Assembly (NCBI RefSeq): GCF_010894435.1
Contig: NZ_JAAIXZ010000002.1
Span: 434,001-498,000 of the forward strand
DNA from: Pyxidicoccus trucidator
GTDB lineage: Bacteria; Myxococcota; Myxococcia; Myxococcales; Myxococcaceae
Reading direction: 5' to 3'
DNA: 64,000 nucleotides
Within the stretch, counting starts at the first letter, position 1. Each line of letters begins with the position of its first letter. A program made the position numbers and the translations under genes. The notes beneath the pieces were generated by a model that was not told where the DNA came from, made no database searches, and worked only from the letters and a program-made list of their open reading frames with translations. Shown here in pieces: positions 44,302-61,600 of the stretch.

Positions 44302-47300
44302 ATGGCGGGTAAGCTTCGAACGGTCTTCCTTAGTGGAACTCGACGTGACCTGGGTAGCTTCTTCGAGGCGGCGAGCGCTGCCATCGAGAAGGAGCTGGCA
44401 GGTTACCGCGTGAGCACGATGGAGGACCTGACACCGGAGGATATCCCGGTGGAGCGCTGGAGCCGCCGTGAGGCGGCAGTGCCGGATCTGCTGGTAGGAC
44501 TGGTGGGCCACTACTATGGGACGCCCCGGGCTGGCGGGCCTTCGCTGAGCGAGCGGGAGTTCGAGCGCGCCGGGATGGCGGGCGTCCCCCGGCTCATGTT
44601 TCTCACCGAGGCAGGCGACCCGGCACTCATCGAGCGCCAGGGCGCAGAGGAACGCCAGCACGTGGCGTCCTTTCGGAGCCGCCTTCAGAGCGGGGAGTTG
44701 GTCATCCGCCCCGGCATCATCACTCCCCAGGAGTTTTCCCGGGAGGTCGTCCGCGCCATCGGGGCGTGGGAGCGCCGGACCCTGGGAGGCGTGCTCCTGC
44801 CGGTGAAGCGATTCGTGGAACTCAACGAGCCATCCGCGCCTGACGGTATGCTGAGCCACCAGCACCCCTATGTTGGTTCGCACGCGTTGCTCGACATCCT
44901 CGAGCGCTTCGCCACTTCAGGCCAACGGATCCTCGTGCTGCATGGGCCGTGGGGACGCGGCAAGACGAGGCTCCTGCTCGAATGGTGCGGCAGGACGCGC
45001 GCAGAGCTCCGGTTTCTGCGGGAGGACGTAACGCTCCCCCATGACGCGCTCAAGAGCGCCGTGGATGACCCGTATGTCTTCATCGTGGAGGACGTGCACA
45101 AGCGTCCGGATGACGAGAAGCAGGCCCTGCTGCACTTTCTCCGGACCCGGGCTTCCAACCTCAAGCTGGTGGTCACCACGCGTACGAACCGCCTTGCCTC
45201 ATTCACCGGGGTGCTGCGGGGACATCACATGGAGCCAGGGCAGGTAGACGTACGAGAAGTCGAGGCACTGAGCGACCTGGCGCAGCGCCAACTCATCGCG
45301 TCCATCCTGGGAAAGAACGACGAGTGGGCCTACACCTTGGCGATGCGCACCCGCGGAAATGCGCTGGCGGGTGTGGTGGCTGCACGGGCCGCCCTGCAGG
45401 GAAGAGCGAACATCCGGGAGATTGAGGGCGAACATTTCGAGAGGGTGGTCGTCGAGAGCTTCCTGGACGCCGTTCTTGACAACGTGGAGGGAGAGCCCGC
45501 ACGGCGTGAGCGCTACAAGAAGGTCTTGAGGTTGGTTGCCGTGGCAGGTCCTGTCTGGCCCAAGGACACCGACGGGCTAGAGGCACTCGCCTGCTTCATC
45601 GGGGTGCGGCGCTATGAACTGCACGAGGATTTTAGTGCCCTGGAAGCCGCAGGGCTGCTGGTGCGCCATGGTGGACTGGTCCGCATCCCGGTTGATGCCG
45701 TCTCCGAATACCAAGTGGTGGATGCCTCCGTTTCCCCACATGGCGAGTCGACCGGCTATGTCGAGGAGGCCCTGAAAACGCTTGCAGAGCCTTTCCTGGG
45801 AAACATCCTCCGCAACCTGGCGATGGCCGATTGGGACCCGAATCAGAACGGACGTGTGGCGAGTGTGACCGGGGAGGTCTGGCAGCTTGTCCCAGACCTT
45901 TACGAGCATATGCCTGCTGTACGCCAAAACAAGATTCGCGAGGTCATCGCGGAGATTGCCCCACTCCATCCGGAACCCGCGTTGCGCTTCGCCGACAGGT
46001 TCCTCGGACCGGAGCTAGAGGATGCAGAGCGCACCGCGCCTTCCTCGCTGTCGTTCCTCTATTACGTGCGGCGGGACTTCACGAGGCTCCTGAAGAACGT
46101 CCTCGGTGCGCCGGTGTGTGTCGCACGGGCTTGTGATCTGCTCTGGAGCCTGGCCATGCAGGAGCCGAACCCAATCAACCCGCAGTCGGACAGTGCTGAA
46201 CGCGTCTTGCAGGACGCAGGTGAGTACCGGCCCACCCAATCTCTGGCGGCGTATGAGGCATTCGTCTCCTGGGCGGAGGTTCGCAGCCATGGAGCGAACA
46301 GACTCCCAGGGCACCGACTGGCGAAGTACCTTTCGCCCCTGCTCCACAAGGAGCTGATGCACGAGTGGTTCGATGGACAGCAGATCACCCTGGAAGCAAA
46401 AGGGCTGCTCTACTCCTACTGGAAACCACTGCGGCGAAGGGTCATCGACCTGCTCATCCGCATTGCGATTGATGGGGACTGGAAGGACGCGCGGGGGGCC
46501 TTGGTAGCGCTCGGCGCGGCGCTCTGGCATCAGCCCGGCTCCTTCCAGCGGCTCGTGAGCGAGGGGGAGCGGAGCCAGTGGATTCCAGAGCAGGAGTATG
46601 CCCTTGCGTGCTTGCGCAAGCTTCGCCAGGAGCGGCGCAGTCCCATCCTGGACCTCTGCATGCCGATGCAACTGTCGAGGCTGGCAGCGCGTGAGCGAGT
46701 GCCGGAACTCCGCGACACGGCCCGAGCACTGGTGGACGAGCTCCAGCGGGACCTGGCGGGCACACTTGAACAGGCCCTGGCAGGGGTGCACTCGGGCGAC
46801 CGACGCGACCCCGCAGGTACGGAGCGCGAACGGCAGGAGGCGCTCCAAGCAGCGGCGCGAGTGCTGGCGGCCCCCGGCGTGTCGCCCGAAGACTCGCTGG
46901 CGCGGCTGACGCGGTCGGCCGTTGCCCTGAATGAGGCCAATCGGCCTCCACGGGTCGAGGAACTCTTCAGTGACGTTGCCCAGACTTCCTCCCGCGTGGC
47001 GACCACCTGGGGCTTACTGCTGGTGCGCGAGCCTGGCCACCCGCTCAGGCCGATGGTGAACGGCTTGGTACGGGGGCTGCTAGGCTCGGATCCCGAAGCA
47101 GGGAAACTCCTCGTGGACGTCCTTCTCGACGACGGAAGCCCGGACTTCCTGAGGAGCCTCCGCTTCGCCGATTCAGACGTGGAGCTCCTGGGGGAGGCCA
47201 AAGTGGTCGCCTTGCTGAAGCGAATGCTGACGCACCCAGCGCTGTCCGTTCGCGCGCATGCTTTCAAACTCCTCGCTTATTCCGGTGGGCTCGGGGCGGC

Positions 47301-48081
47301 AGTACGAGCGGGCTTGCTGCTCAGCCACCACGTGAACGAAGAGCTGGCGGAGTCGTGGGCCGAGGCGGTCGTCCAGGAGGAACTCTACGTTGTGTATGGC
47401 CAGGAAGAAAAAGAGGTGCTCGCGCAGGCCCTCAGAACACCTCGCTCGCTCGGTCATTGGTGCGGGGAGCTCATGGTGAAGCTTGTCGAGGACGTACCCG
47501 CCGCAGTGGTCGATATGATGCTGGCGCGAATCGAGGCGGTGGACCGGGAGGGCATCGGCTTCGAGGCCGTCCCTGTACTGGCCAGCCACGAGACACCCGC
47601 TTCGGAGGGACTGGTTCCGGAGGAGCGGCAGCGAGCGATGCTGGCGCTGAGCCGCCTGCTCGAACACGAGAATGTCTTGGTGGGTGAATATGCCCGGCGG
47701 TGGTTCGCGGAGCTCGCGTCCATGAACCGCGAGGTCAGGCGTGCCATCCGGCTCCACTGGATCCAGGCAGGTACGGCAGGCGCCGTGATGCGGGCCCTCG
47801 ACAGCTTCGAGGAAGAGCCGCCCATGAGCCTCTTCGAGCAGGAGGACGAGGTCATTGCGCTCCTGGAAGCCGCGATGAAGTGCGGCCCGGAGCTTCTGGA
47901 GGAAGCCCAGCAGGTGCTGGCCCGTGTCGCGCGCGGTGGTGTGAGGCAGGGGGCTCCGGGTGAGCAGTCTTCGCGCGACCTGGAGTTCCGGGAGCGCTCT
48001 CAAGTGCACAGCCAGAAGCACCCGGACGAGACGCTCGCGGGCCGGTTCTACCGGCGGCTCGCTGGAGAGTTGGACGGTTGA
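44302..48081 (+). CDS. DUF4062-STAND ATPase with helical-repeat C-terminus
   Basis: Protein of 1259 residues. The N-terminal DUF4062 domain (TIR-like fold) reads TVFLSGTRRDLGSFFEAASA then MEDLTPEDIPVERWSRREAA, LLVGLVGHYYGTPRA and LSEREFERAG. A STAND-type ATPase follows with P-loop ILVLHGPWGRGKTRLLLEW near residue 207 and Walker B YVFIVEDVHKRPDD near 255. From about residue 450 on it is Leu-rich and helical with HEAT-like units (LGEAKVVALLKRMLTHPALS, VRAHAFKLLAYSGGLGAAVR) to the end. STAND proteins of this plan sense phage or stress molecules and trigger the N-terminal effector. The ATG at 44302 has no good RBS. Confidence 0.88.
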   Translation: MAGKLRTVFLSGTRRDLGSFFEAASAAIEKELAGYRVSTMEDLTPEDIPVERWSRREAAVPDLLVGLVGHYYGTPRAGGPSLSEREFERAGMAGVPRLMFLTEAGDPALIERQGAEERQHVASFRSRLQSGELVIRPGIITPQEFSREVVRAIGAWERRTLGGVLLPVKRFVELNEPSAPDGMLSHQHPYVGSHALLDILERFATSGQRILVLHGPWGRGKTRLLLEWCGRTRAELRFLREDVTLPHDALKSAVDDPYVFIVEDVHKRPDDEKQALLHFLRTRASNLKLVVTTRTNRLASFTGVLRGHHMEPGQVDVREVEALSDLAQRQLIASILGKNDEWAYTLAMRTRGNALAGVVAARAALQGRANIREIEGEHFERVVVESFLDAVLDNVEGEPARRERYKKVLRLVAVAGPVWPKDTDGLEALACFIGVRRYELHEDFSALEAAGLLVRHGGLVRIPVDAVSEYQVVDASVSPHGESTGYVEEALKTLAEPFLGNILRNLAMADWDPNQNGRVASVTGEVWQLVPDLYEHMPAVRQNKIREVIAEIAPLHPEPALRFADRFLGPELEDAERTAPSSLSFLYYVRRDFTRLLKNVLGAPVCVARACDLLWSLAMQEPNPINPQSDSAERVLQDAGEYRPTQSLAAYEAFVSWAEVRSHGANRLPGHRLAKYLSPLLHKELMHEWFDGQQITLEAKGLLYSYWKPLRRRVIDLLIRIAIDGDWKDARGALVALGAALWHQPGSFQRLVSEGERSQWIPEQEYALACLRKLRQERRSPILDLCMPMQLSRLAARERVPELRDTARALVDELQRDLAGTLEQALAGVHSGDRRDPAGTERERQEALQAAARVLAAPGVSPEDSLARLTRSAVALNEANRPPRVEELFSDVAQTSSRVATTWGLLLVREPGHPLRPMVNGLVRGLLGSDPEAGKLLVDVLLDDGSPDFLRSLRFADSDVELLGEAKVVALLKRMLTHPALSVRAHAFKLLAYSGGLGAAVRAGLLLSHHVNEELAESWAEAVVQEELYVVYGQEEKEVLAQALRTPRSLGHWCGELMVKLVEDVPAAVVDMMLARIEAVDREGIGFEAVPVLASHETPASEGLVPEERQRAMLALSRLLEHENVLVGEYARRWFAELASMNREVRRAIRLHWIQAGTAGAVMRALDSFEEEPPMSLFEQEDEVIALLEAAMKCGPELLEEAQQVLARVARGGVRQGAPGEQSSRDLEFRERSQVHSQKHPDETLAGRFYRRLAGELDG

Positions 48082-48198
48082 TAGCGCAGCGGCGGACGGT
48101 TGAGGAAGAGATTGCCCGAGAGCCGCCGGGAGCGTGCCGGAGGCTGGAGCCCGCCACATCCTTCCAACGCGGTGATGGCTGATACGTTGGAAGCGCGT

Positions 48199-49689
48199 AT
48201 GTTCCCGCACGTTCGTCAGCGCCCTGGAGGTTTCGTGTCCGTGCCCGTCCCGCCCCGTCCGATGTGCTTCGTGGCCATGCCGTTCGGCACCAAAACCCCT
48301 CCGGGGCTGGCTGGGCCCGCCGTGCACTTCGACGAGGTGTGGCAGGGGCTCAAGGCCGTTCTCGAACGGCAGGGACTCGAGGCCATCCGTGCCGATGAGG
48401 AGCTGATGGGTGGCTTCATCCACCGCCCCATGTACGAGCGGCTGGTCGTGTCCGAGTACGTCATTGCCGACCTCACCTTCAGCAACGCCAATGTGGCCTA
48501 CGAGGTCGGCGTGCGCCATGGCGCGAGCCGCGGTGCCACCGTGCTCATCTGCGAGCAGCGTTCTCTCGCGCAGCTTCCCTTCGACTTCCGGGCGCTTCGC
48601 GTAGTGCCCTACGACGCGGGGAGCGACGGACACGTCACGACCGAGGCGATGCAACAGCTCGAAAAGACGCTGACGGAGCGCATCCAGCAGGCCCGACGCG
48701 GCGAGCTGCCCCCGGACAATCCGCTCATCCAGGTGACCCGCATCGGCCCGGGGAGCATCGCGCATGACAAGACGGACGTCTTCCTGCTGCGCACGCCCTA
48801 CGTGAATGCGATGACGGAGCGGATTGGCGCGGCCCTGACCCTGAAGGACAAGGAGAAGGCGCTCGCCCAGCTGGAGTCCGTGCGCGCGGAGATCCTGAAA
48901 GCGCCTCAGGAGGTGGCCCAGCTCCACACGGTGCTGCTGCACCTCTTCATCGCCTATCGCGAGAAGGGCGAGTTCCAGCGGCTGGTGGACCTGTACCCGC
49001 ATCTGCCCGCGGAGCTGCAGCGGACTCCCGTGGCGCGCGAGCAGCTCGCGCTCGCGCTCAACCGCCTGGCGGAGGCTGCCGCCAAGGCCAAGGACTTCGC
49101 GGGCGGCCAGCAGTTGCGGGCGCAGGCGCTCGAGGTGGTGCGCACCATTTCTCCGGAGCAGCAGAGCAGTGAGACCTTCGGCATCCTGGGCCGCATCTAC
49201 AAGGGCCTCGCGGACGCCGAGCAACAGGCGGGGAACACGGCCGAGGCTCAGGCCGCGGTGAAGAAGGCCATCCAGGCCTACGAAGATGGATTCCGGAAGG
49301 ACCCGCGCGACTACTACCCGGGCGTCAACGCGGTGACGTTGCGAATCGTCCGAGGCCGTGCCGAGGACGAGGTCGCGCTGAAGCGCCTGCTGCCCGTGGT
49401 CCGCTTCTCGGTGGACCGCGCCCCAGCGCCCAACTCGCAGAGCAAGGCCGAGGCGTACTGGCAGGAGGCGACCCGGCTGGAGCTGGCCTGCGCCGAGAGG
49501 GACTGGCCGTCCGTGGAGCAGCATGTCGAGGCGCTGCTGGGGCTCGGGGCCGAGCCATGGATGCAGTCCTGGATGTACGAAACGACGTCCGCGAATCTGA
49601 AGAAGCAGCGCGACGCCCGGTCCGGCGAGCCCGAGACGGTGAGACAGCTCGAAGGCATCCTCCAGAAGCTCATGCCGAAGACGTCCTGA
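48199..49689 (+). CDS. Deoxyribosyltransferase/TIR-like domain plus TRAFs-binding-like (DUF4071) protein
   Basis: Protein of about 496 residues. The N-terminal domain is a Rossmann-like nucleotide-binding fold: RPMCFVAMPFGTKTPPGLAG, FDEVWQGLKAVLERQGLEAI, then VIADLTFSNANVAYEVGVRH and TVLICEQ, the pattern of nucleoside 2-deoxyribosyltransferase-like conflict domains. The rest is helical with TPR-like units (AREQLALALNRLAEAAAKAK, FGILGRIYKGLADAEQQAGN), like the TRAFs-binding domain (formerly DUF4071) named from animal MAP3 kinases. Starts at 48175 (ATG), 48199 (ATG, GGAAG upstream) and 48235 (GTG, after GGAGG) are all possible; 48199 was chosen as a compromise. It follows the DUF4062-STAND gene on the same strand. 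Confidence 0.8.
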   Translation: MFPHVRQRPGGFVSVPVPPRPMCFVAMPFGTKTPPGLAGPAVHFDEVWQGLKAVLERQGLEAIRADEELMGGFIHRPMYERLVVSEYVIADLTFSNANVAYEVGVRHGASRGATVLICEQRSLAQLPFDFRALRVVPYDAGSDGHVTTEAMQQLEKTLTERIQQARRGELPPDNPLIQVTRIGPGSIAHDKTDVFLLRTPYVNAMTERIGAALTLKDKEKALAQLESVRAEILKAPQEVAQLHTVLLHLFIAYREKGEFQRLVDLYPHLPAELQRTPVAREQLALALNRLAEAAAKAKDFAGGQQLRAQALEVVRTISPEQQSSETFGILGRIYKGLADAEQQAGNTAEAQAAVKKAIQAYEDGFRKDPRDYYPGVNAVTLRIVRGRAEDEVALKRLLPVVRFSVDRAPAPNSQSKAEAYWQEATRLELACAERDWPSVEQHVEALLGLGAEPWMQSWMYETTSANLKKQRDARSGEPETVRQLEGILQKLMPKTS

Positions 49690-49712: not shown

Positions 49713-50669
49713 CTACTTGGGCGAGAAGGGGTCCTCGGGGAACGGGCGGGTCGCCACGGTGACGCTGAAGTCTCCTCCCAGGGAGGGCTCCATCCAATCC
49801 TCGAGGTTTGGCTCCACCTCGCACCCGGCCTGCATGAGCTTCCTGCGAAGCGTGCGCCTCGAGTCGATGCCATTGGTGAGGCGGATGTGGAGGATGCCGT
49901 CAAGGTCGGAGGGCAGCTCGACATGCCCCACGGTGACCAGGATGGTGCCGTCGCGGTTCAGCCCCATGGCCATCCCCGCCTCGTAGATGACATTGGGTCG
50001 CGGCTGCCAGCGGCGGATGTTCCGCTCTGACTCGGTGGGCTCACGCCGTTCAGGGACGAGGCATGCGAATTCGTCCGGAGTCAGAAGCGCGATGACGGCC
50101 CGGGTCTTCGACACCCCGCGTGCGACGATCTCCACGATGGGCGTGTTGGAAACGGATTCGTGAAACTCGTCCACGAAGGTCCAGGCCTGGAGTCCCACGC
50201 CCTTCAGGAAGCGCTTCAGCTCCTGCAGGGTGGCTCTGTCCCGGCCGTGGATGATGAAAACCTTCTTCCCGTCTTTCGCGGGGGGCGCCACCGTCGGCAC
50301 TGCGGCATCCACCTTCGGTGGCGACACCGGAGGATGGGGTTGTTGCGGCTCGGCGGGCTCGCTCACGTCCTCGATTGCGCCCAGCTCCAGGATGCGCTCG
50401 ATGAGCGGCGCCTTTTCGCGACCGCTTTCGTCCACGTCGAGCGCCAGGCAGATGGCCTTCAGCTCGTCACGTGTGAGCAGCTCGAGAACGTCGGCGAACT
50501 CCACCGACCTGGAGCGGACAATTGCGGAGATGTGCTGCTCGTAGACGCGGCGATCTTCAACGTGCAGGTCGAAGACGGTCGTGATGTCGGAGAGCCGATC
50601 CCGGCTGAGCTCCTGAAGGGCTGCTCGCCGCACTGCCGGAGGAAGCCGACGTTTTTCTTTCGAGGCCAT
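49713..50669 (-). CDS. TIR-like (CAP12/PCTIR-type) nucleotide-binding protein
   Basis: Protein of 318 residues. The N-terminal 110 residues are helical (ALQELSRDRLSDITTVFDLH, VLELLTRDELKAICLALDVD) and resemble an adaptor or DNA/protein-binding part. A Pro linker follows. The C-terminal TIR-like domain starts KKVFIIHGRDRATLQELKRF around residue 134, with GLQAWTFVDEFHESVSNTPI, AVIALLTPDEFACL, NVIYEAGMAMGLNRDGTI. This is the PF10137-type domain found in CBASS and Pycsar effectors and in stand-alone genes. It probably hydrolyses NAD or a nucleotide (inference). It converges with the TRAFs-binding gene and diverges from the TIR-WD40 gene. Confidence 0.85.
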   Translation of the reverse strand: MASKEKRRLPPAVRRAALQELSRDRLSDITTVFDLHVEDRRVYEQHISAIVRSRSVEFADVLELLTRDELKAICLALDVDESGREKAPLIERILELGAIEDVSEPAEPQQPHPPVSPPKVDAAVPTVAPPAKDGKKVFIIHGRDRATLQELKRFLKGVGLQAWTFVDEFHESVSNTPIVEIVARGVSKTRAVIALLTPDEFACLVPERREPTESERNIRRWQPRPNVIYEAGMAMGLNRDGTILVTVGHVELPSDLDGILHIRLTNGIDSRRTLRRKLMQAGCEVEPNLEDWMEPSLGGDFSVTVATRPFPEDPFSPK

Positions 50670-50832: not shown

Positions 50833-53800
50833 ATGGTAGAGCTGACGGACGTCTATCTCTGCTGCGTCCCGGAGGAACGGGAGTTCGTACGCTCGCTGGA
50901 GGACACTCTCCGCCTCGCCCGGCGGAAGCCCTTCGTCGCGGACGGAGAAGGCGCCACCGGAAGCTGGGAGCCAGGCGCCGAAGCCGCACTGAAGGCGGCG
51001 CGTAACTTCGTCCTCATCCTCAGCCCGGACTCCGCGGCCTCCCCACGCTGCCGAGCGCAGGTCGCGCACGCGGTGAAACAAAAGAAGCGCATCGTGCCCG
51101 TGCTGCGCAGGGACGTGCAGGCGGAGGCCCGCCCCCGGGCCGTCACCTTGCTGCGTCCCATTGACTTCCGGGAGCAGGATGACGCCAAGGCGGCGATGCG
51201 GGCCCTGCTCCTCGCGCTGGACAGTGCGCTCACAGTGGATGTCTTCATCTGCTACTCGCGGAAGGACAAGCCCTTCGTGGACCACCTGTACGCGGCCTTC
51301 GAGCGGGCGGAGAAACGGACCTGGCTGGACCTGAGGAACATCCCCCTGTTGGCCGAATGGCCGACGGAAATCGAGGCTGGCATCGAGGCCGCCGAGCACT
51401 TCCTCTTCGTCCTGAGCCCGGACTCCGTCGCCTCCACGGAGTGCCGGAGGGAGCTGGACCATGCGCTGCGCCTGCACAAGCGGCTGGTCCCGGTGCTGTA
51501 CCGGGACGTCCCGGACGCGCAGGTCCCCCGCCCACTCTCGGTCATCGAGCGAGTCCCCCTTCGGGAGAAGAGCTTCGACGACGACTTCGTGGCGCTGCTG
51601 GCCGCGCTCGGAACCGACCTGTCCTTTGTGCGCGCGCACACGCGCCTGTTGGTACGTGCGCTCGATTGGGAGAAGCAGCAGCAGGATGACAGCCTGCTGC
51701 TTCAGGGCAAGGACCTCGAAGCCGCGGAAGCCTGGCTGGGGACGGCGGTTCCCGGCACCGGGCCGCAGCCGGTGCCGCTGCATACCGAGTACATCCTGCG
51801 CAGCCGCCAGGAGGCGACGCGGCGTCTCCGGCTCCAGTTGGCCGCCGTCTCGATGGGCCTCGTCATCGCGATAGCCCTGATGCTGACGGCTCTCTACCAG
51901 TACTCTCAAAAAGAGGAGCAGCGCCGCATCGCCGTCTCGCTGCAGCTTGCGGCGCAGTCGAACGAGCAGCGGCCCCGGAAGCTCGAGCTGGCGCTCCTCC
52001 TGGCCGCCGAGTCCTTCGAGGCCTCGCCTACCGTGGAGGCACGCAGCGCCCTGCTCTCGGCGCTGCGTGACGCCTCGTACCTCCAGTCGTACCTGCACGG
52101 GCACGAGCGCCGCATCAGCCAGGTGGCCTTCAGCCCTGATGGCAGGTGGCTCGCCTCCGGAAGCCACGATGGCACTGCCCGGCGCTGGGATGTGCGAACG
52201 TGGGAATCCCACGCGATTCCCGAGCTGGCCAGCGAGAGCGACTTCGTGCAGGGGGTGGCCTTCAGTGGCGACGGACGGTTCCTCGCCGCTGCGGCGGATG
52301 ACGGTGCGGTCCGGGTCTGGGACAGCGTGAGCGGGACGCCTGTCTGTGCGCCATTGAAGAAGGACGGCGGGCCCATGCAGAGCGTGGCGTTCAGCCCGAA
52401 GGGCGGACTGCTGGTGGCGGGGGACCTCCTTGGGAAGCTTCACCTCTGGCAGGTGGAGCCGGGACGATGCGAACCGCTCGAAACCGCCGTGCATGGTGCC
52501 GAGGGCCCCGTGGTCCAGCTGGCCTTCAGTCCGGACGGCCAGCGCCTGGCCTCGGGACATGGAGATGGCTCCGTGCTGATGTGGCAGGTCCAGGCGGAGC
52601 AGCTGCGGGAACCCCACTTCAGTCCGCTGGGCGCGGCGAAGAGAGTCCTCGACCTCGCCTTCAGCCCGGACGGCCAGTGGGTGGCCGTGGGCGGCTTCGA
52701 TGGCAGCCTCCGGCTCTGGAGCATCACCACGCCGGAGGCGCCGGTCATCCCGCTCCTGAACGGTGGCGAGCGGGTCTTCAGTGTCGCCTTCAGCCCGGAT
52801 GGGCGGAGGCTCGCTTCGGGCGGCGCCGATGGGCGCGTGCGCCTTTGGGACCCGCAGCTCGGCAGGGAGCTTCCTGGTTTCAACCCGGGCCGCCAGTCAT
52901 GGGTCACCAGCCTCGCGTTCAGCCGGGATGGCCGCTACCTCATCTCCGGGAGCGCGGATGGCGCATTGGCGCGCTGGGACCTGGAGATGTACGAGGACCC
53001 CGGGGAGCACCGACCCCTGGGGCGCCGTCTCACCGGGAAGCGTGGGCAGGTGATGCACCTAGCGTTCTCTCCCGATGCCGGAACCCTCGTCTCGGGCGGG
53101 CTGGACGGTGACGTGGTGCCGTGGGCCCTGGGCTCCCCCTCGGTGCAGCCCCTTGCGGCACGTCCCTGCTCACGTTTCGAGGAGGTCCGGGGCGTGGGTT
53201 TCCACCCGGGTGGCGGTGAGTTCGCGGTCGCCGCGGGAGACACCGCGGTGCGCCTGGATGCGCGGAGCTGTGCGTCTATCGGGACTCCGTTCCACGTCGA
53301 TGCGGGTCCCGAGACGCTGATGGGCATCGCCTACGGCGAGGACGGCAATACCCTGGTGGCGGTGAGCGACGTGGGGGCGGTCTACCTCTGGGATGTCACG
53401 GGGAAGCCTGATGCGCGGCTTGCTCCGGATGCAGGTGTCGGGGTGGTGGACGTGGATTTCAGTCCGGACCGCCAGCGGGTGGCGCTGGGCGCTGGTGATG
53501 GAAGCGTCCTCTTCGTGGAGGCCAAGGCGGGTGGCCGCTATTCCAGAGCTGGCCCGATCCCTCGTTCTTCGGTCTCGGCCGTCGCGTTCAGCCCCGACGG
53601 TCGGCTGCTGGCCTCCGGGGGAGACGATGGCCGCGTCCTGTTCTTGGACGCGAGCACGGGCAAGGCGCTCGGGGACCCGGTGCCCACCCAGGCGAAGCGG
53701 GTGTTCAGCGTGGCCTTCAGCGGGGATGGCCGCACGGCGGCCTCAGGGTACGAGGATGGGACGCTGGTGCTCTGGGACGTGCAGTCCCGGGAGCCCATCG

Positions 53801-54042
53801 GGATTCCCCTGAAGGGGCACCGTGACTTCGTCACGGCCCTCGCGTTCACGGCGGACGGTGCCTTCCTGGCATCCGGAGACGAGAAGGGCACGGTGCTCCT
53901 GTGGGATGCGCGGGTGGAGTCCTGGCAGGCCCGGGCCTGCCGCATCGCGAATCGAGACTTCACCCCCGACGAGCGGAGACGCCACTTCGGCGACCCGCCT
54001 GTGCCTGGCGCGTGCCAGCGTCTGCTCGGGGAGTCCCCCTGA
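50833..54042 (+). CDS. Tandem TIR - membrane helix - WD40 propeller protein
   Basis: Protein of 1069 residues. TIR 1 (about residues 5-130) reads DVYLCCVPEEREFVRSLEDT then VLILSPDSAASPRCRAQVAH. TIR 2 (about 134-270) reads DVFICYSRKDKPFVDHLYAA then LFVLSPDSVASTECRRELDH. Alignment places Gln76 of TIR 1 opposite Glu207 of TIR 2, the usual NADase Glu. A membrane helix spans residues 334-357 (LAAVSMGLVIAIALMLTALY). From about residue 420 at least 12 WD40 units follow (VAFSPDGRWLASGSHDG, SVAFSPDGRRLASGGADG). TIR domains would face the cytoplasm and the propeller the periplasm, unless the helix is a signal anchor in reverse. GAGGTGA precedes the ATG. Confidence 0.9.
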   Translation: MVELTDVYLCCVPEEREFVRSLEDTLRLARRKPFVADGEGATGSWEPGAEAALKAARNFVLILSPDSAASPRCRAQVAHAVKQKKRIVPVLRRDVQAEARPRAVTLLRPIDFREQDDAKAAMRALLLALDSALTVDVFICYSRKDKPFVDHLYAAFERAEKRTWLDLRNIPLLAEWPTEIEAGIEAAEHFLFVLSPDSVASTECRRELDHALRLHKRLVPVLYRDVPDAQVPRPLSVIERVPLREKSFDDDFVALLAALGTDLSFVRAHTRLLVRALDWEKQQQDDSLLLQGKDLEAAEAWLGTAVPGTGPQPVPLHTEYILRSRQEATRRLRLQLAAVSMGLVIAIALMLTALYQYSQKEEQRRIAVSLQLAAQSNEQRPRKLELALLLAAESFEASPTVEARSALLSALRDASYLQSYLHGHERRISQVAFSPDGRWLASGSHDGTARRWDVRTWESHAIPELASESDFVQGVAFSGDGRFLAAAADDGAVRVWDSVSGTPVCAPLKKDGGPMQSVAFSPKGGLLVAGDLLGKLHLWQVEPGRCEPLETAVHGAEGPVVQLAFSPDGQRLASGHGDGSVLMWQVQAEQLREPHFSPLGAAKRVLDLAFSPDGQWVAVGGFDGSLRLWSITTPEAPVIPLLNGGERVFSVAFSPDGRRLASGGADGRVRLWDPQLGRELPGFNPGRQSWVTSLAFSRDGRYLISGSADGALARWDLEMYEDPGEHRPLGRRLTGKRGQVMHLAFSPDAGTLVSGGLDGDVVPWALGSPSVQPLAARPCSRFEEVRGVGFHPGGGEFAVAAGDTAVRLDARSCASIGTPFHVDAGPETLMGIAYGEDGNTLVAVSDVGAVYLWDVTGKPDARLAPDAGVGVVDVDFSPDRQRVALGAGDGSVLFVEAKAGGRYSRAGPIPRSSVSAVAFSPDGRLLASGGDDGRVLFLDASTGKALGDPVPTQAKRVFSVAFSGDGRTAASGYEDGTLVLWDVQSREPIGIPLKGHRDFVTALAFTADGAFLASGDEKGTVLLWDARVESWQARACRIANRDFTPDERRRHFGDPPVPGACQRLLGESP

Positions 54043-54196: not shown

Positions 54197-57100
54197 CTAC
54201 CTGCCCATGGAGCGCACCTTCCTCTCCCGGTGCATCCACGGAACCTGTGCTCGCTCTCCGTCGAACCACGCGACACCCTGCGTGTTGACCCATCCCGCCA
54301 GCTCAGAGTTCTCAACGAGGGCGTGCCTCTCCCCGTGAATCATCCATGCCAGCACCCACCCCGAAGCTTCGAGCCGCTCTGCGAGAGCGGGCAGCGAAGC
54401 GAAGACGGCATCGGGCCCACCTGCCAGAGCGAAGTTCCTGAAGAGCAATCGCCCATCCGGAAGCCGGTACCCGCTGGACTCCCGGTCTAACTGCAATTGC
54501 CACTGCTGAATGAGCCAGGGGGTGGGAAGGGTGATTATCCTTTCGTGTGTATCCATCTCAGCGAACAGGTGGGCGTAGGGCACGGGGAAATACTCATCCC
54601 AATCGATGCCTGGCTGGTTCGCGTGGATGAACCCCACAGCGAGTTCCCCCTTCAGCGCGCTCCAACGATCCAGGGGGAGCGCGTCCGCTCTGGGGATCTC
54701 CGGCCGCCCGATGCTTCGCAACCGCTCCTGCACCTGGGGCTTCTTCAAATCCTCGAGAAGCCGGCGCAGGCTCGATTTCTGGATCACCTGCGCCCTGCCC
54801 ATCCACCGGATATCCGCCACGAAATCCGGCTCCGCCCATTCGCCAGGCACCCATGGGCGCTCCCAGACCTGGAAGATGTTCGCGCGGATCCAGGGAGTGG
54901 CTGGTGAATCGCCTGCTTCAGGTGGAACCCGGTGCAGGAGCGTAGGGAACGCAGGCTCGACGTGCGGATTCTGGATCCAGGCTTGGATGGATGGCTTTGT
55001 CGGCTCGGGCCAGGGCTGTGAAGGCTCGCCACCATCCGGGGCAGTGGATTTGAAAGGCCTCTCGGCCCGCTTGGGAGGGACGAGCCATAGGGATGGTGCA
55101 GGCAGGTCTTTTCGCAAGTCCCTGGGGGTTTCATAGACCTTGGAGCCATCGCGCCGGTCTGCGCTCACATAGTAGTGGTCCGTCAGGAAGGCCTGCAGGG
55201 TTCTCCATCCAATCCACTGGTATTTCTTGCCGATTCGTTCGATTCGCCCCCCTGCATGGATTCTCACGTCCGAGTGCATTGCTTCTTCATCGAAGGAATT
55301 GAACCGTTGGGACGTCCAGCCGAGCTTCAAGCAGTTATGCGCGATGAACCGGCCCATCAACGCAATGTCGAAGGACTCTGCCTTGGCCGCGCCGCCCAAC
55401 AGTGCCTCGGACCTCCGATAGGGTCGTTCGGGTTCCGTTGAAGACGGCAGCGGGCGAGCGAAGAACCGCGCACCTCCAGAGTTTCCTCCCAGTTCATACA
55501 GGAAGAAGTCTCCGCTCGTGCAGGAACGGACGATGGCCCGATAGCCCCGGGATTCGTCCATGGCTCGGAGCTGCTCTATGGAGGGAACACTCCCCAGCTC
55601 CAGATGACTTGCATGGGGTGGGACAACTCGGGCGAGGTCAATCTCCCCGGGCTTCGTGACCGCGGCCGCACGCTCGACAATGGACCGGGCATAGTGCCGG
55701 ATGAAGAGGTGGCACCACCGCGGCCCTCCCTGCGGGAAGTGTTGCTGATACACGAGCCGGCCGATGCGGCTGACCCACGCCTGGTTCTTCTGAACCTCGA
55801 CTACGCCTAGAACAGCCCGAAGGGAGGATTCGACCACATAGGCGTCGTCTACCGGAGTCAGCGCGGGCAGGAAGTTCTCGACAATACCCGGACAGGCATT
55901 GAGGACACGGCAGAGCCCCCGGGTTGCCGCCTCACGCTGTCCGGTGTGTGAACTGGCGCAGGCCCACATGAGGACAAGCGCAAGGGGGGCGGCGACGTCG
56001 GGCTCTAGCTCCTTGAACCCGTACGCATCCGTCCATTGCGTCAGGATGGAAAGCGTCGCGCCCTCATCCTTCCAGGAGTTGGCGAGATGAACCGACCAGA
56101 GCGCGTCTCGGTCCCCGAGGGACTTCTGAGCAGATAGCCCTGGATGGAGGAACTTCGCCACCTGTAGCGGATGTCCAGGGATGAGAGAGAGCCGGATGTA
56201 GAAATCAACACGTTTTGAGAAGGTCCACGGGAGACATGCCTCCCATTGCTCCAGAAGCTTCCGGAGCTCCAGCGGAGACACTCCAAATTCCCGGTCCTGG
56301 TTGCGCCAGAGGAGACTGTCAAAGAACGCCATGGCCACCCGGCGCTTCGAGACCCCAGCCGGAGGAATGATTTCGACGAGCTCCTGGCCTGTCCTTCGAG
56401 GGATTTCCAGGGCAAGCGCCTTGAGGAGCCCAGGCGCGTTGTAGGGTGGGCTCCCAGGCGAGTCCGAGACGAGCGCATGGAGTTCGCCCCCTTGCGAGAA
56501 TGAATGGATGAGCCTCTTCTGTCCGATACGGCCCTCCGCGTCCGCCATGCGGCCGAGCAACCGGTCCGCCAGGAAGGTGTCCGAGAGCCGCTCAAAGGCA
56601 AACTGGAGAAAGTCATCATCCGGATTCGGACCGGGAACCTTCATCAGGATGTCGTTGGAGATGAAGAACGCGATGAGAGGTCGGCCGTGTGCGTACCGGT
56701 TGGCGATCTCCTCCGCACGGGCGCGGTCAATCGAGAGCGAGCCGCTCTCGAGCAGGGTGTCGGCGAGTTGATTGAGCGCTCTACGGATGGGGCTTTTCGC
56801 GGTCTCGTCAATTCCCAGCGCCGCATCTTCGAGCGCTGCACCCTCCAGGTGGTCGATGAGTCCATCCCGGACATCGAGCCAGGAAGGAAGCAGTCCGCGG
56901 ATGCGCCCGTGGCCCCGCATGCTCAGGCAGAGCAGCTTCAGGTAGAGGGGATTGCTGAGCTCGGGAATGATGGGAGGAGAGACGGGGGCTTCAAGTCCAT
57001 AGTGCGCGAAGAACCTGAGCAGCGCTTCGGCCTCGACCCCGGCGAATCCCCTGACCTCGCATTCGTTCCAGGCGGTGCGCCCTGCCTCGTCTTGAGGCGG

Positions 57101-58573
57101 TAGGGTACTCTTCAGGTAGTCGCTGCGTACCGAGAAGACCACTGCGATATTCGAGTACTTGCGGGCTTGTTCGAGCATGCCCGCGAGCTGTACCCGCCAG
57201 CGGCTCCGTGGCTGCGTCTCGTTGAGTGCATCGAAAGCGATGAGCGCCATGCACTGACGGCGCCGGGCTTCCGCCGAGAGCGTCGCGAGGAACTGGTCCG
57301 GCGTTGTGTCGCCAGCGATGCCCAGCCGGGCAAAGATTTCCTGCCACAGGTCGCCTGTACCCGTGAGCTGCTGTCCGAGCACGCCGACCGCGACACCTCC
57401 CTGCTGAACATGGCGGAGGACCTGATCGACCAGGGCATGGGTCTTCCCCTGTCCTGCCGAGCCATGGAGCAACAGGACCGGTGACTCCATCAAAGGGGCG
57501 TACTGCTCGACCAGGTCGAGCACCGAGCTGCATTGTATTGCCGCTGCCTGAAGGAGATACGTACGGTCGACAGAGGAACTCGCCGTATCGCCGGGGGGGC
57601 TGCTCCCTCTCGCCGCGCGGCCCTTCGCTCCCTTCTTCCTGCTCACCGTGTCCAGTCCCTCGATGCATCGCTTCTCCAAAGCCCTCAAGACGGCCTGAAT
57701 CCGCTCGAAGTCTGGAGGCGCCTCCCACGGCTCGAGCTGCCCGAGTGCGGTGGCTACACCCCGCAGGGCCTGCCTGCTCGACTCCAGCTCCTCCGTGTAG
57801 CGGACCAGGGCAAAGACTTCGCCCAGTGCGTCATCCAGTTCCTTGAGGGCCTGTGGCAGCCTCAGCACTGCATGGAACGCCTTCGCCAGTGGCGTTTCAA
57901 CGTGAACTTCCGGGGTGAAGCGGGGGCCCGCGTCCTTCGCGAGCCTCCTGGCGCTGTCCTGGAGCCATTGGTCGAATGGCTGCCGCAGCCAGGGAGCCTG
58001 CCTGTGGAGATAGGTGCGGAGGTGATGCTCCAACTGCTCCGCGAAGTCCCGTGTCGTCTTGAAGGTGTGAAAACCGCCGTGCTGTGAGCCGTCCAGTGCC
58101 TGCACCCATGAAGACTCGAAGAAGGCGTCTACCTTCTTCCTCTGGCGGGAGTCTGCCTTCGCGTTCGCCGGCCCCCGGTAGAGCAGTATGTACGGCTGAG
58201 CGCCCTGCGTCCGCTGGGCTTGCTTCCACGCCTGGTGGAACTCGTACTCGCTTCCAGATTCGAAGGCAGAGCCATCTTCCTTCTGGAACTTCTTTCGCGG
58301 CAGGGGCGTGCCCATGCGGCCGCGGAAGATGCCCACGCAGACATCGCAGTCCTGTGGGCGCTTCACTTCCAGGTCGACGGATTCCTGGGGCGGGCGAGTG
58401 GCCACCATGGGCACCGTGCGTCCCTGGGCATCCGAAGCCTCGACCCGAAGAATGAAGCGGTCTTGCAGGTACGGGTCGCGCAGGAGCTTCTGGACTACGC
58501 GTTCAGTCGCCCGTCGCTCGTGCACGCAGTCGCCAGGCGAGGAGAGGAACAGCGTCAGGGTGCGGAGGCCCAT
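54197..58573 (-). CDS. DUF4062-STAND/NACHT-like ATPase, large
   Basis: Protein of 1458 residues. DUF4062 domain at the start: LRTLTLFLSSPGDCVHERRA, DCDVCVGIFRGRMGTPLPRK and FESGSEYEFHQAWKQAQ. The P-loop VLLLHGSAGQGKTHALVDQV lies near residue 364, and Walker B CMALIAFDALNET near 440, with DALNE like many STAND ATPases. The C-terminal 700 residues are of unknown fold (PLALVLMWACASSHTGQREA, GWVLAWMIHGERHALVENSE), without clear repeats. GGAG lies nine bases before the ATG at 58573. Its DUF4062 resembles that of the next gene. It converges with the TIR-WD40 gene. Confidence 0.87.
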   Translation of the reverse strand: MGLRTLTLFLSSPGDCVHERRATERVVQKLLRDPYLQDRFILRVEASDAQGRTVPMVATRPPQESVDLEVKRPQDCDVCVGIFRGRMGTPLPRKKFQKEDGSAFESGSEYEFHQAWKQAQRTQGAQPYILLYRGPANAKADSRQRKKVDAFFESSWVQALDGSQHGGFHTFKTTRDFAEQLEHHLRTYLHRQAPWLRQPFDQWLQDSARRLAKDAGPRFTPEVHVETPLAKAFHAVLRLPQALKELDDALGEVFALVRYTEELESSRQALRGVATALGQLEPWEAPPDFERIQAVLRALEKRCIEGLDTVSRKKGAKGRAARGSSPPGDTASSSVDRTYLLQAAAIQCSSVLDLVEQYAPLMESPVLLLHGSAGQGKTHALVDQVLRHVQQGGVAVGVLGQQLTGTGDLWQEIFARLGIAGDTTPDQFLATLSAEARRRQCMALIAFDALNETQPRSRWRVQLAGMLEQARKYSNIAVVFSVRSDYLKSTLPPQDEAGRTAWNECEVRGFAGVEAEALLRFFAHYGLEAPVSPPIIPELSNPLYLKLLCLSMRGHGRIRGLLPSWLDVRDGLIDHLEGAALEDAALGIDETAKSPIRRALNQLADTLLESGSLSIDRARAEEIANRYAHGRPLIAFFISNDILMKVPGPNPDDDFLQFAFERLSDTFLADRLLGRMADAEGRIGQKRLIHSFSQGGELHALVSDSPGSPPYNAPGLLKALALEIPRRTGQELVEIIPPAGVSKRRVAMAFFDSLLWRNQDREFGVSPLELRKLLEQWEACLPWTFSKRVDFYIRLSLIPGHPLQVAKFLHPGLSAQKSLGDRDALWSVHLANSWKDEGATLSILTQWTDAYGFKELEPDVAAPLALVLMWACASSHTGQREAATRGLCRVLNACPGIVENFLPALTPVDDAYVVESSLRAVLGVVEVQKNQAWVSRIGRLVYQQHFPQGGPRWCHLFIRHYARSIVERAAAVTKPGEIDLARVVPPHASHLELGSVPSIEQLRAMDESRGYRAIVRSCTSGDFFLYELGGNSGGARFFARPLPSSTEPERPYRRSEALLGGAAKAESFDIALMGRFIAHNCLKLGWTSQRFNSFDEEAMHSDVRIHAGGRIERIGKKYQWIGWRTLQAFLTDHYYVSADRRDGSKVYETPRDLRKDLPAPSLWLVPPKRAERPFKSTAPDGGEPSQPWPEPTKPSIQAWIQNPHVEPAFPTLLHRVPPEAGDSPATPWIRANIFQVWERPWVPGEWAEPDFVADIRWMGRAQVIQKSSLRRLLEDLKKPQVQERLRSIGRPEIPRADALPLDRWSALKGELAVGFIHANQPGIDWDEYFPVPYAHLFAEMDTHERIITLPTPWLIQQWQLQLDRESSGYRLPDGRLLFRNFALAGGPDAVFASLPALAERLEASGWVLAWMIHGERHALVENSELAGWVNTQGVAWFDGERAQVPWMHRERKVRSMGR

Positions 58574-58686
58574 CGCGATGACTCCAGGAGCGGCGGAGGT
58601 GCCGCCGAAGCAGGTGGAGCGGGGAAGAACGGCATCCTCGTGCTGACCGAACGGAGCTCCGGCCCGCGGGGAAGCCCGGCGCGGCT

Positions 58687-61600
58687 TCAGCGTGCCGGGG
58701 CGCGCGACGTACGGCGCAGCCGGGTGAGTGCCTGGGCCGCCCACTCCCTGAGCCAGGGCGTGGGGTCCACCGCCGCCCGCTGTTCGAGGAGGGTGAGTGT
58801 CTCGGAGTGGTGAGGCCAGTGCAGGACCAGGCCATGCAGTGCCGCCTCACGGACGTGGTATGGGGCGTCGCGAGGCTCATCCTCCGGGCCCGGTGACTCG
58901 TCCCTCACCGCCGCATCGGTCAGCAGTACCCGGGTCTCTTCCCGGTCCGCGAAGTACTCGGCGAGCGCCAGCGCGACGATGGTGCGTGGGTACTTGTGCT
59001 CCTCCTCCCTCAGGCGCTCGGCCAGGAGTCGGAAGGTCTCCGGGTCTGCCCGGAACTGGCGGGCCAGTCCGCTCGCCGCGGATGCCCGGTCCAGGGCATG
59101 GGGGCCTCGTGCGGTCATCTCCCGGAGCAATTCTGCTGTCCCTTCGTGCCGGGGATAGTGGTCCGCCAACGCGTAGAGGGCCGCGTAGCGTACGCTTGCG
59201 TCCGTGTCCGAGCGCGCGAGCCGTGTCAGCCGGGAGTAGGTGCCTCCTTCTGGCCAACCCTGCGCAAGGGCGAATGGTGCGAGAACCCGCTGGCGGGGGT
59301 CCGAGTGGGACGACGCATAGTCCAGCACCGCGGCATGCACCTGAGAGTCACCTCTGCCGAGCGCGCCAATGCTGATTCCGAAGAGCTTGTCGTAGATATA
59401 CGAGTACCGCTGTGGCGCTCGCTGCTTCAGCAGCCTCGCCAGGTGGTGACGCTCGGGCCATGCGGTGCCGATCGACATGAGGTGCGGCACCACGTGCAGT
59501 TGCATGAAGTTGTAGAAGATGGGGACCGAGGCCATGTCCTTGTCGAACTCCATGCACAGGCCTTCGAGCAGGCGTGCCGCTGGAACAGCCATCTCCGCGG
59601 GCCGCTTGACCTCCCGCAGGCACTGCAGGGCCAGGGCGAGGTGCCACGGCGGCCGGCCCTTTGTGCGCTCCGCCGAGGCGTCGCCACACTCGGCGCAGAG
59701 GTACTCGATGATGTTCGCGGTGAAGGACGGGTCGATGACGCCCGCGATGAGCCGCAGGACCTCGTGCCAGGACTGGTCGCTCCAGTGCTGCCCATACACC
59801 TCGCGCTTGAGCTGCTCCGGGTCGAGCTTCCGCGTCTTCTCGAACTTGTGCGTGAGCGAGGCCGCGCAGAAGTACTCCAGGAAGCCCCGGTGGACGAAGC
59901 CATAGAGCCCCGCTCCGAAGGGCGAGATGATGAAGTTGCGTTCGTGGAGCTGCTGGATGATGGCCCGTGCCACCGGGGTTGCCTCCGTGGGCACCGCGCC
60001 GTACCGCGTCTGGACGTAGTCCTCGAACTCGTTCAGCAGGTCCTGCTTGTGGATGTAGTTCCCGGCGAGCCCGCGACTGGCCTGCATCTTGTACGCGAGC
60101 CTCCGCAGCATCTCCTTCTTGTCGTCCGCGTCGATGTACCTCACATGCAGTTGCTGGTTCCTCAGGAGCCGGTTCACGTCCCAGTGCTGGATGAGCACCG
60201 TCGCCGCATGCTCGTAGAGCTTCCAGCGCTCTCGGGGCAGCTCCTGGTTCTTGCCGATGATGGCCAGGATGGTGAGCAGCAGGGGATTGCCGGAGAGGGC
60301 GCGGATGGACGGAGACGCTTCGAGTGCCTCGGCGAGCCGCTGGGTGCGCTCGGCGGCCTCCTGCGACCGGTCGTACATGGCTCTTGAGAACCACGCATCG
60401 AGGAACTCCCGGGTCTGCTGCGGGGACAGGTCTTGAAGTGAGTAGTGGCGGAAGCCCGCATCGGTGAGGATCTTCCGCCGGTAGCCTACGTGCCGGCTCG
60501 TCACCAGGACTCGGGCCTGGGGATACTGGACCCCGAGGCCAGCAATCTCCCGCGCCACCTCATCGCGCTCCTCGGGCTGGAACACTTCATCCAGGCCGTC
60601 GAAGATGAACAGCACTCGGCCCTCTTCCTTCAGGTAGGAGCGCAGTGCCTGGGTGGACGGGTAGTAGCCCTCCATGGTCTTCAGCCGCTCAATGTAGTCG
60701 AAGAGCGTGGCACAGGGGCCCGTGGGCTGGCGCAGCGCCACGTAGCTCCGCAGCTCGATGAGGAGGGGGATGAATCTCTCGTAGGCCTTCCGCACCCGCT
60801 CGTCGCCCTGCTCGTCCACGAGCGACAGGAGGATGTAGCGGGCGAGGGTGGACTTGCCGGAGCCAGGGTCCCCCAGGAGGATGACCTGCTCGTTGACGGC
60901 CCGCGCCAGGGCGTCGAACACCGGGATGGGAGGCTGCTCGTAGTAGACCTCGCTGACGCGCCGGACCTCCTCCAGGGGGACCTCGCGGGGCAGGTCGTCC
61001 GGGTGCAGTTCTCCCTCGTTGCTCAAGCGCTGGAGCACCTCCTTGGGGATGTCGAGCGGGGGCGCGTTCTCCCGGACTCCAGCCTCCACGAAGACGGAGC
61101 GGAGCTGGATCTGGAGGTATTCCTCCCGTTCCGGCGGGGTGAGCCCTTCCAGGTCCAGCCGTTGATAGCGCTTGAGGGCCTCTCGCTGGTACACGGTGAG
61201 CTCCTGTCGCCATGAGGGCTCGGGGGGCGGCCGCGGGGCCTCCTGACCGCCGTCATCCAAGCGCTGGCGCAGGAAGCTCTCAAGGTTCTTCTTGAGGAGG
61301 GCGCTGAACGCCTCGGGCTCGGGATAGGCGTTGTAGCCACCCCGTAGTGAGCCGTCCGGGGCCGTGAAGCGGCCCAGGAACTTCTTTACCGCCGCGTACT
61401 GCGCGCGCTTCACGTCGAAGTCTGGGTCGTCGATGTCGAGCTGCGGCTTGTAGGTGCGGTGATAGACGAACACCGTCTTCTTCGCGCGCTGCGCATCCTC
61501 GAACTCCCACTCCGTTCCAGACGCGTACCGGGTGCCATCGGGACGCGCGTCCTGCTCTGGCAGCGGGGTGCCCAGGCGGCTCCAGAGGATGACGAGCGTG

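What the first reader, a model, noticed from the sequence alone, without database searches (positions are those of the whole stretch)
50833..54042. Tandem TIR with catalytic Glu missing in the first copy, tethered to a WD40 propeller by a membrane helix
Aligning the two TIR copies puts SPRCRAQVAHA over STECRRELDHA, so position 76 is Gln where TIR 2 has Glu207. The second copy keeps the Glu that TIR NADases need. This suggests a pseudo-TIR paired with an active TIR in one chain, perhaps pre-forming the composite active site used by TIR filaments. The propeller beyond the membrane could sense an envelope event.
Basis: partly seen in the sequence, partly recalled or inferred. Interest (0 to 1): 0.82.

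Follow-up and report, generated by a model that had tools for sequence, protein, structure and literature searches.

The report
Pseudo-TIR fused to active-looking TIR
A membrane protein in a bacterial defence-gene cluster carries two copies of an NAD-destroying enzyme domain side by side, one with its active site worn away and one that looks intact, and unrelated bacteria seem to have evolved the same lopsided arrangement.

Summary
ORF 50833-54042 (+, 1069 aa) reads TIR1, TIR2, helical linker, one membrane helix, 14 WD40 repeats. TIR1 has Gln76 where TIR2 has Glu207, with no acidic residue in TIR1's alphaC helix. TIR1 still passes Pfam's TIR cut-off and is predicted as an intact TIR fold (pLDDT 89). 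More than the Glu is gone: the AA/BB-loop part keeps 4 of 13 family positions, the rest an ordinary 14 of 22. It is not a lone case. Among related domains gathered here, Glu stands in 174 of 174 of single-TIR chains but is lost in 9 of 84 of multi-TIR chains (8 to Gln; window included). On a weakly resolved tree these are 9 separate losses. One genome drawn from the Anaerolineaceae phylum has the same TIR(Gln)-TIR(Glu)-TM-WD40 layout. The gene lies among NADase-type and NLR-type defence genes. Best reading: TIR2 is the NADase and TIR1 a fixed non-catalytic partner, as half the TIRs may be in SPARTA tetramers. Activity, partnership and the propeller's side are untested. Cooperating tandem TIRs are already known in a cotton receptor. 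New variant of a known kind.

The parts
50833..54042 (+). whole gene, 1069 aa: TIR1-TIR2-linker-TM-WD40
50845..51231 (+). TIR1 (aa 5-133), pseudo-TIR
   Evidence: Pfam TIR_2 59.4 bits; model pLDDT 88.6, pTM 0.84; VIA Z 17.6 to SPARTA TIR 8qlp
51058..51060 (+). codon of Gln76 (CAG) at the catalytic-Glu position
51232..51618 (+). TIR2 (aa 134-262), keeps the catalytic Glu
   Evidence: Pfam TIR_2 93.9 bits; VIA Z 19.7 to SPARTA TIR 8i87
51451..51453 (+). codon of Glu207 (GAG)
51619..51807 (+). helical linker (aa 263-325), shared with the TIR-TM relatives
51838..51903 (+). membrane helix (about aa 336-357)
   Evidence: hydropathy 2.49; 117 of 134 relatives have more K/R before than after it
51904..52086 (+). 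post-membrane segment (aa 358-418)
52087..53922 (+). 14 WD40 repeats (about aa 419-1030)
   Evidence: Pfam WD40 6.1e-95; 14 regular cores plus one irregular
49713..50669 (-). divergent neighbour: SAP-like + CAP12/Pycsar-type TIR (318 aa)
   Evidence: PF10137 1.3e-21; SAP below its cut-off; PDC-S35 2.1e-23
48100..49689 (+). neighbour: TPR-S / MAP3K_TRAF_bd protein
44251..48081 (+). neighbour: DUF4062 (above cut-off) + STAND-like NTPase (below cut-off)
   Evidence: PF13271 9.6e-6, nSTAND_NTPase5 0.0025
54197..58744 (-). neighbour: Avs2 homologue, perhaps with a DUF4062-like N-terminus
   Evidence: PADLOC Avs2 3.5e-175; DUF4062 only 0.13, below cut-off
58687..63096 (-). neighbour: NACHT + HEAT protein with a PDC-S60 match

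Best explanation
This is a membrane-anchored, NADase-type immune receptor in which the two halves of a TIR pair are fixed in one chain. TIR2 (Glu207, largely intact AA and BB loops) is the enzyme. TIR1 is a pseudo-TIR that kept its fold and most of its rear half but lost Glu and both NAD-binding loops, so it cannot be an active head. It serves as a built-in tail or stacking partner that lowers the number of chains needed to make TIR2 active, or stops a filament growing past the pair. A signal read by the WD40 propellers, on the far side of the membrane helix from the TIRs, clusters the chains and lines up TIR1 and TIR2; TIR2 then breaks down NAD+ and halts the infected cell. Shown here: the anatomy, Glu-to-Gln, the selective loss of the NAD-binding half, recurrence elsewhere, defence context. 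Inferred: activity of TIR2, partnership, side of the propellers, signal and outcome.
For: Gln76/Glu207 with no other acid in TIR1 alphaC. TIR1 predicted as a full TIR fold; ten-residue blocks are at 91 or more except the N-terminus (79), residues 31-50 around the BB loop (79, 68) and the last three residues (66). Top VIA matches are SPARTA TIRs, Z 17.6, rmsd 2.1, 122 aligned, tied within 1 Z with others such as a Hydra Toll-related TIR at 17.0. Selective decay: head columns 4 of 13 kept (0.8th percentile of 247 Glu-bearing TIRs), the rest 14 of 22 (36th percentile). Recurrence: L170 TIR(Q)-TIR(E)-TM-WD40, L169 TIR(Q)...TIR(E). Glu lost in 9 of 84 multi-chain domains against 0 of 174 single (Fisher p 3.0e-5; without the window, L170 and L212, 7 of 78, p 2.2e-4); 9 changes on the tree. 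Precedents: the SPARTA tetramer may hold only two competent TIRs of four, BB-loop head inserted into the neighbour's tail (PMC10474274 passages; PMC11156904 active-site section); composite sites in TIR-STING and Cat1 (PMC9402430, PMC12421889, PMC12162218 passages); plant review: one TIR gives BB loop and Glu, the DE surface of the other is more variable, and in cotton GhRVD1 (TIR-TIR-NBD-LRR) neither TIR alone kills (PMC12856790 passages). A cNMP-binding domain takes the place before the TIR in relatives L065 and L087, as expected of a regulatory module. Defence setting.
Against: No activity, binding or assembly data. The family Asn-Trp pair near betaE (69% each in single-TIR domains) is absent from TIR1 (Arg-Pro) and TIR2 (Glu-Arg), and TIR2 has Cys for a 96% Ser, so the tail face is not canonical and TIR2 is not textbook either. 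A Glu-less plant TIR receptor still confers resistance (PMC12856790) and TirC E162A kept activity under crowding (PMC13142454 passages), so lack of Glu does not prove TIR1 dead. The model of 1-326 has pTM 0.72 and no interface score, so it says nothing about TIR1-TIR2 docking. The head/tail split of columns was chosen after seeing the sequence. In L198, L200 and L205 the last TIR, next to the membrane, is a Gln copy, so the order is not universal. The tree is poorly resolved. In the window's phylum 1 of 195 genomes showed this tandem, so purifying selection on TIR1 could not be measured.
Confidence: 0.45

Rival explanations
1. TIR1 is a brake. Without its own active site it covers TIR2's BB loop or pocket in the resting cell, and the propeller signal pulls it away.
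For: Autoinhibition through the BB loop is reported in TIR-like NADases (KpSwz in PMC13174449, Results part 1 read; ElSTING in PMC12421889, passages). The TIR2 match starts 6 residues after the TIR1 match ends, which favours a fixed contact. Fold kept, NAD-binding half lost.
Against: Nothing here distinguishes a brake from an activating partner; no intrachain interface was scored.
Confidence: 0.2
2. TIR1 is a relic: an internal duplicate of TIR2 that lost constraint and is decaying without a role.
For: TIR1 joins TIR2 on the tree (local support 76 only) with a long end branch of 1.21; the tandem was seen in 1 of 195 genomes of the phylum.
Against: The non-catalytic half is as conserved as in average Glu-bearing TIRs (36th percentile); reading frame and predicted fold are intact; 8 of 9 losses in the set go to Gln, not to a spread of residues; the arrangement recurs.
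Confidence: 0.18
3. Neither TIR is an NADase; both are scaffolds that recruit another TIR or NADase of the cluster, such as the divergent CAP12/Pycsar-type TIR.
For: A CAP12/Pycsar-type TIR gene diverges 163 bp upstream; TIR2 lacks the family Asn-Trp pair and a 96% Ser.
Against: TIR2 keeps Glu207, Tyr, Trp-x-Asp-x-x-x-Ile-Pro and 19 of 21 non-head positions.
Confidence: 0.1
4. TIR2 makes a signal (a cyclic ADP-ribose isomer) rather than depleting NAD+, feeding another effector of the cluster.
For: Several NAD- and nucleotide-type proteins lie side by side; Thoeris TIRs are reported to do this (abstract starts).
Against: No SIR2-SLOG or Macro receptor was recognised among the neighbours scanned.
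Confidence: 0.07

Closest known systems
Single-TIR TIR-linker-TM-WD40 proteins of Chloroflexota, Cyanobacteria and others (unnamed here; many of loci L035-L100)
   Same: TIR, helical linker, membrane helix, WD40; up to 51% identity over TIR2
   Different: One TIR; Glu in each readable domain of the set
Three- and five-TIR membrane proteins (L033, L034, L102, L104, L111 and others)
   Same: Same TIR family, several TIRs in one chain; a few copies lose Glu
   Different: TIR matches lie 74-187 residues apart; here 6
Cotton GhRVD1, TIR-TIR-NBD-LRR (PMC12856790, passages)
   Same: Two TIRs in one immune receptor that need each other through the BE interface
   Different: Plant NLR; whether either TIR lacks Glu was not seen
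SPARTA TIR-APAZ/short Argonaute (PMC10474274 passages; PMC11156904 passages and one section)
   Same: Top-ranked fold matches; head-to-tail TIRs of which perhaps half are competent
   Different: There the difference is conformational between identical chains; no Argonaute here
Bacterial TIR-STING and Cat1 (PMC9402430, PMC12421889, PMC12162218; passages)
   Same: TIR NADase switched on by assembly of a site formed by two TIRs
   Different: Nucleotide-ligand sensors, single TIR per chain
DUF4062 'Swarozyc' NADases (PMC13174449; abstract, first part of Results)
   Same: TIR-like antiphage NADase; one DUF4062 gene in the window and one downstream pass the Pfam cut-off
   Different: Separate proteins; not the family of this gene
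Human FAM118A/FAM118B (PMC12700824, passages)
   Same: NAD processing raised when two paralogues stack head-to-tail
   Different: Sirtuins, two chains; both active sites are needed there, unlike a pseudoenzyme pairing
Mollusc Toll-2 with tandem TIRs (PMC4929906, passages)
   Same: Two TIRs in one receptor; both together signal more strongly
   Different: Animal adaptor signalling, not NADase

Membership tests
TIR domain (Pfam TIR_2), TIR1 | score above the curated cut-off | tested here: met
   59.4 bits against 28
TIR domain (Pfam TIR_2), TIR1 | TIR fold | tested here: met
   predicted model pLDDT 88.6; SPARTA Z 17.6, SARM1 7anw Z 16.5 over 127 residues; prediction, not experiment
TIR NADase, TIR1 | catalytic Glu in alphaC | tested here: not met
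   Gln76; no acid in residues 67-93
TIR NADase, TIR2 | catalytic Glu in alphaC | tested here: met
   Glu207 aligned with the Glu of Cat1 and of the family
TIR NADase, TIR2 | AA and BB loop positions | tested here: met
   12 of 14 head columns kept; a 96% Ser is Cys
TIR NADase, TIR2 | NAD+ cleavage | not testable with these tools
   needs an assay
TIR-TM-WD40 proteins | TIR, linker, single membrane helix, WD40 in this order | tested here: met
Pseudo-TIR/TIR pair | contact of the two TIRs in the active state | not testable with these tools
   no complex prediction offered
Thoeris ThsB | match to a ThsB model over its length | tested here: inconclusive
   weak partial matches, E 0.002-0.007, to TIR2 only
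TIR-STAND / NLR | STAND or NACHT NTPase domain in the chain | tested here: inconclusive
   none among the 25 best Pfam rows shown of 49; linker and membrane helix lie where it would be

The most novel reading that the evidence does not exclude
Pseudo-TIR/TIR pairs are a recurrently evolved solution: bacteria hard-wire into one chain the division into catalytic head and non-catalytic tail that SPARTA and TIR filaments reach by assembly, so that a minimal NADase unit forms inside one or two receptor chains at the membrane instead of needing a filament. Glu-to-Gln is the favoured replacement.
Probability: 0.3. Interest if true: 0.8.

Novelty: new variant of a known kind. Interest (0 to 1): 0.6.

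Why it matters
TIR NADases are switched on by assembly, and it is hard to separate the residues that catalyse from those that stack. Chains in which nature seems to have kept one role per domain let each role be tested alone. If the pair works as proposed, it would be a very small natural composite TIR active site, and would show that pseudoenzymes have arisen repeatedly among bacterial TIR NADases. Eight literature searches (open-access library, listings of up to 30 papers each, a few followed into passages) showed me no description of bacterial TIR-TM-WD40 proteins or of Glu-less copies in bacterial multi-TIR chains; longer hit lists were not read through.

Tried and rejected
Relatives in phages: no match. 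Viral contigs: 62 pattern matches, none confirmed. Plasmids: 7 records, all below 60% identity, none covering 80% of the query; the three that I translated have one or three spaced TIRs, the other four were not opened; a second query gave 4 records. A hit covering query 78-372 in the Rubrivivax genome (L117) looked like a tandem, but the frame upstream is spurious. The second 'TIR' matches in L091 and L098 are the tail of the same TIR after an insert, read by eye; they were labelled multi, and moved to the single class. L124 holds only two short fragments. Before the counts, domains with under 70 filled columns were dropped and copies of the window (L001, L011) merged. The head/tail split and the tree are post hoc. 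A probability from branch lengths (4e-6) and one for the Gln bias under BLOSUM62 (4e-8) were computed; I do not lean on them, since the background is crude and the set was gathered with a query that holds a Gln copy. L170 was found through its TIR1 similarity, so the count is also given without it. That each of the multi-TIR chains keeps at least one Glu says little, because losing all copies is improbable at this rate. First-look caps (29 candidates scored per genome, 9, 4; all scored) mean that tandems may have been missed. Swarozyc and Avs2 were rejected as the identity of this gene: those are neighbours. The prokaryotic WD40 survey PMC5587647 and the conflict-system papers PMC8195603 and PMC7159879 were searched for passages; none of the passages shown describes this architecture.
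Full report
WHAT IS THERE. ORF 50833-54042 (+) encodes 1069 aa. Pfam finds TIR_2 twice and WD40. Anatomy: TIR1 about 5-133, TIR2 about 134-262, a helical linker to about 325, a membrane helix at about 336-357, a short segment, then 14 evenly spaced WD40 repeats to about 1030. With 14 repeats two propellers are likelier than one (inference). The window is G000:C2:434001-498000 of a 12.67 Mb genome.

THE CATALYTIC POSITION. TIR1 and TIR2 align at 34% identity, without a gap around the site. TIR1 has Gln76 (CAG), TIR2 Glu207 (GAG). TIR1 holds no Asp or Glu between residues 67 and 93, so no neighbouring acid can stand in within the helix. In the model of TIR1 (69 sequences, pLDDT 88.6, pTM 0.84) Gln76 lies in helix 71-82; apart from the last three residues the least confident block is 41-50 at 68, in the BB-loop region. 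In the model of residues 1-326 the matching TIR2 helix is 202-213. VIA-align puts TIR1 on SPARTA (Z 17.6, rmsd 2.1, 122 aligned) and SARM1 TIRs (7anw, Z 16.5), and TIR2 on SPARTA (Z 19.7, rmsd 1.6, 128 aligned) and SARM1 (9mw2, Z 19.0); a Hydra Toll-related TIR ties with the best in both lists. A residue-level superposition was not available to me, so the equivalence rests on the sequence alignment and the helix order.

MORE THAN ONE RESIDUE. Against positions conserved in single-TIR relatives, TIR1 keeps 4 of 13 in the AA/BB-loop part (0.8th percentile of 247 Glu-bearing TIRs) but 14 of 22 in the rest (36th percentile); TIR2 keeps 12 of 14 and 19 of 21. The Ser-Tyr-Ser-Arg and Trp-x-Asp...Ile-Pro signatures are gone in TIR1; TIR2 keeps them except that the first Ser is Cys. 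TIR1 seems to have lost what is needed to bind NAD while keeping what is needed to fold. The boundary between the two parts was set by me after seeing the sequence.

RELATIVES. A genome-contig scan found 308 relatives, of which 80 loci were kept. Searches of 195, 398, 400, 386, 149 and 149 genomes in six phyla, with 61 near relatives and 7 and 29 genomes re-searched by class, added more. Most of the relatives listed have one TIR, then a membrane helix; many go on to WD40. Others carry three or five TIRs set apart by long linkers. In L065 and L087 Pfam finds a cyclic-nucleotide-binding domain before the TIR; L067 looks the same by eye but its row is not among the 25 shown. One search held 208 distinct ORFs with a TIR. 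After dropping domains with under 70 filled columns, 258 remained: 172 single, 86 multi. With L091 and L098 moved to the single class, Glu stands in 174 of 174 single-TIR domains; in multi-TIR chains 75 of 84 have Glu, 8 Gln, 1 Ala (Fisher p 3.0e-5). Without the window it is 8 of 82 (p 8.7e-5), and without L170 and L212 too 7 of 78 (p 2.2e-4). Loci fetched later were not added. On a FastTree of 254 domains with the catalytic column removed, the fewest changes are 9, one for each case, but 100 of 248 inner branches are open. Window TIR1 joins window TIR2 (76), L169 TIR1 joins its own second TIR (79), while the first TIRs of L170 and L212 join each other (98) and not their second TIRs. The pattern therefore looks convergent, with modest support.

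THE NEAREST COUNTERPART. L170 (genome G613, drawn from the phylum of an Anaerolineaceae genome) has two TIR matches 20 residues apart, Gln in the first, Glu in the second, then a membrane helix by eye and WD40. Its paralogue L212 keeps Glu in the first TIR but has lost most head positions (5 of 14 kept). This suggests that the loops can go before the Glu. L169 has TIR(Gln), membrane segments by eye, then TIR(Glu). Results against a simple rule: in L198 the third TIR, and in L200 and L205 the second and third, are Gln; in L097 the second is Ala. So which copy is lost varies.

TOPOLOGY. Lys/Arg are commoner before than after the membrane helix in 117 of 134 relatives, equal in 12, fewer in 5 (means 4.5 and 2.2). 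By the positive-inside rule (established knowledge) the TIRs are cytoplasmic, as an NADase needs, and the propellers lie beyond the membrane. This is inference from charge only.

SETTING. Divergent from the gene, 163 bp away, is a CAP12/Pycsar-type TIR protein. Around it lie a DUF4062 protein with a sub-threshold STAND match, a TPR-S protein, an Avs2 homologue (3.5e-175) with a possibly DUF4062-like start (Pfam 0.13, not significant; PDC-S60 2.2e-8), and a NACHT-HEAT protein. Past the window come TPR-S, patatin, dynamin-TIR, DUF4062 and TIR-HEAT genes. A DDE transposase lies at 42323-43480 and a class II (alanyl-type) tRNA synthetase at 38762-41509. DUF4062 was recently reported as a TIR-like antiphage NADase (PMC13174449; abstract and first part of Results read). 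The gene sits in a defence cluster, which supports an immune role without proving one.

HOW IT MOST LIKELY WORKS. [quoted passage not shown] TIR-STING and Cat1 use the same principle (PMC9402430, PMC12421889, PMC12162218, passages). A plant review puts BB loop and Glu on one TIR and a more variable DE surface on its partner (PMC12856790, passages). A chain with one good head and one headless but folded TIR fits a fixed head-tail pair. The best explanation, at 0.45, is that TIR1 is such a partner for TIR2. A brake (0.2) and a relic (0.18) remain open. Against the partner model stand the loss of the family's Asn-Trp in both copies, reported activity of TIRs without the Glu, and the lack of any interface evidence.

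NOVELTY. The parts are known kinds. Cooperating tandem TIRs are known in cotton GhRVD1 and mollusc Tolls (PMC4929906, passages), and a Dictyostelium protein has two diverged tandem TIRs (PMC13142454, passages). The pairing of a degenerate and an intact TIR in one bacterial chain, and its recurrence, did not appear in the listings of eight searches of the open-access library. The TIR survey PMC7075850 reports the Glu in more than 70% of all TIRs (passages), so Glu-less TIRs are common overall; they are rare in this family.

Noticed in passing
54197-58744 (-): Avs2 homologue (PADLOC 3.5e-175 over aa 235-1088) whose N-terminus looks DUF4062-like: perhaps an Avs2 with a TIR-like NADase effector.
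   Followed up: partly
49713-50669 (-): SAP-like plus CAP12/Pycsar-type TIR protein (PDC-S35) divergently transcribed from the finding's gene, 163 bp apart.
   Followed up: partly
58687-63096 (-): 1469-aa protein with a PDC-S60 match, NACHT and HEAT repeats; its 3' end overlaps the start of the Avs2-like ORF as called.
   Followed up: no
44251-48081 and 48100-49689 (+): DUF4062 gene with a weak STAND match followed by a TPR-S/MAP3K_TRAF_bd gene, possibly one operon.
   Followed up: no
L287 (G000:C2:497000-516500): Cluster continues past the window: TPR-S, patatin, dynamin-TIR, DUF4062, TIR-HEAT.
   Followed up: partly
L065, L087 (and by eye L067): Cyclic-nucleotide-binding domain N-terminal to the same TIR-TM-WD40 arrangement: candidate cNMP-gated NADase.
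   Followed up: partly
L070, L102: Five TIR domains in one chain of about 2000 aa, all five with Glu.
   Followed up: no
G196 (genome of L035, Anaerolineaceae MAG): 39 matches to the TIR-TIR-TM query in one genome.
   Followed up: no
L066 4694-5008 and 5001-7451: Truncated TIR fragment directly before an intact TIR-WD40 gene.
   Followed up: no
L012: TIR-linker-TM protein with a TPR-like tail next to a gene that looks like SLOG plus membrane helices, read by eye.
   Followed up: no
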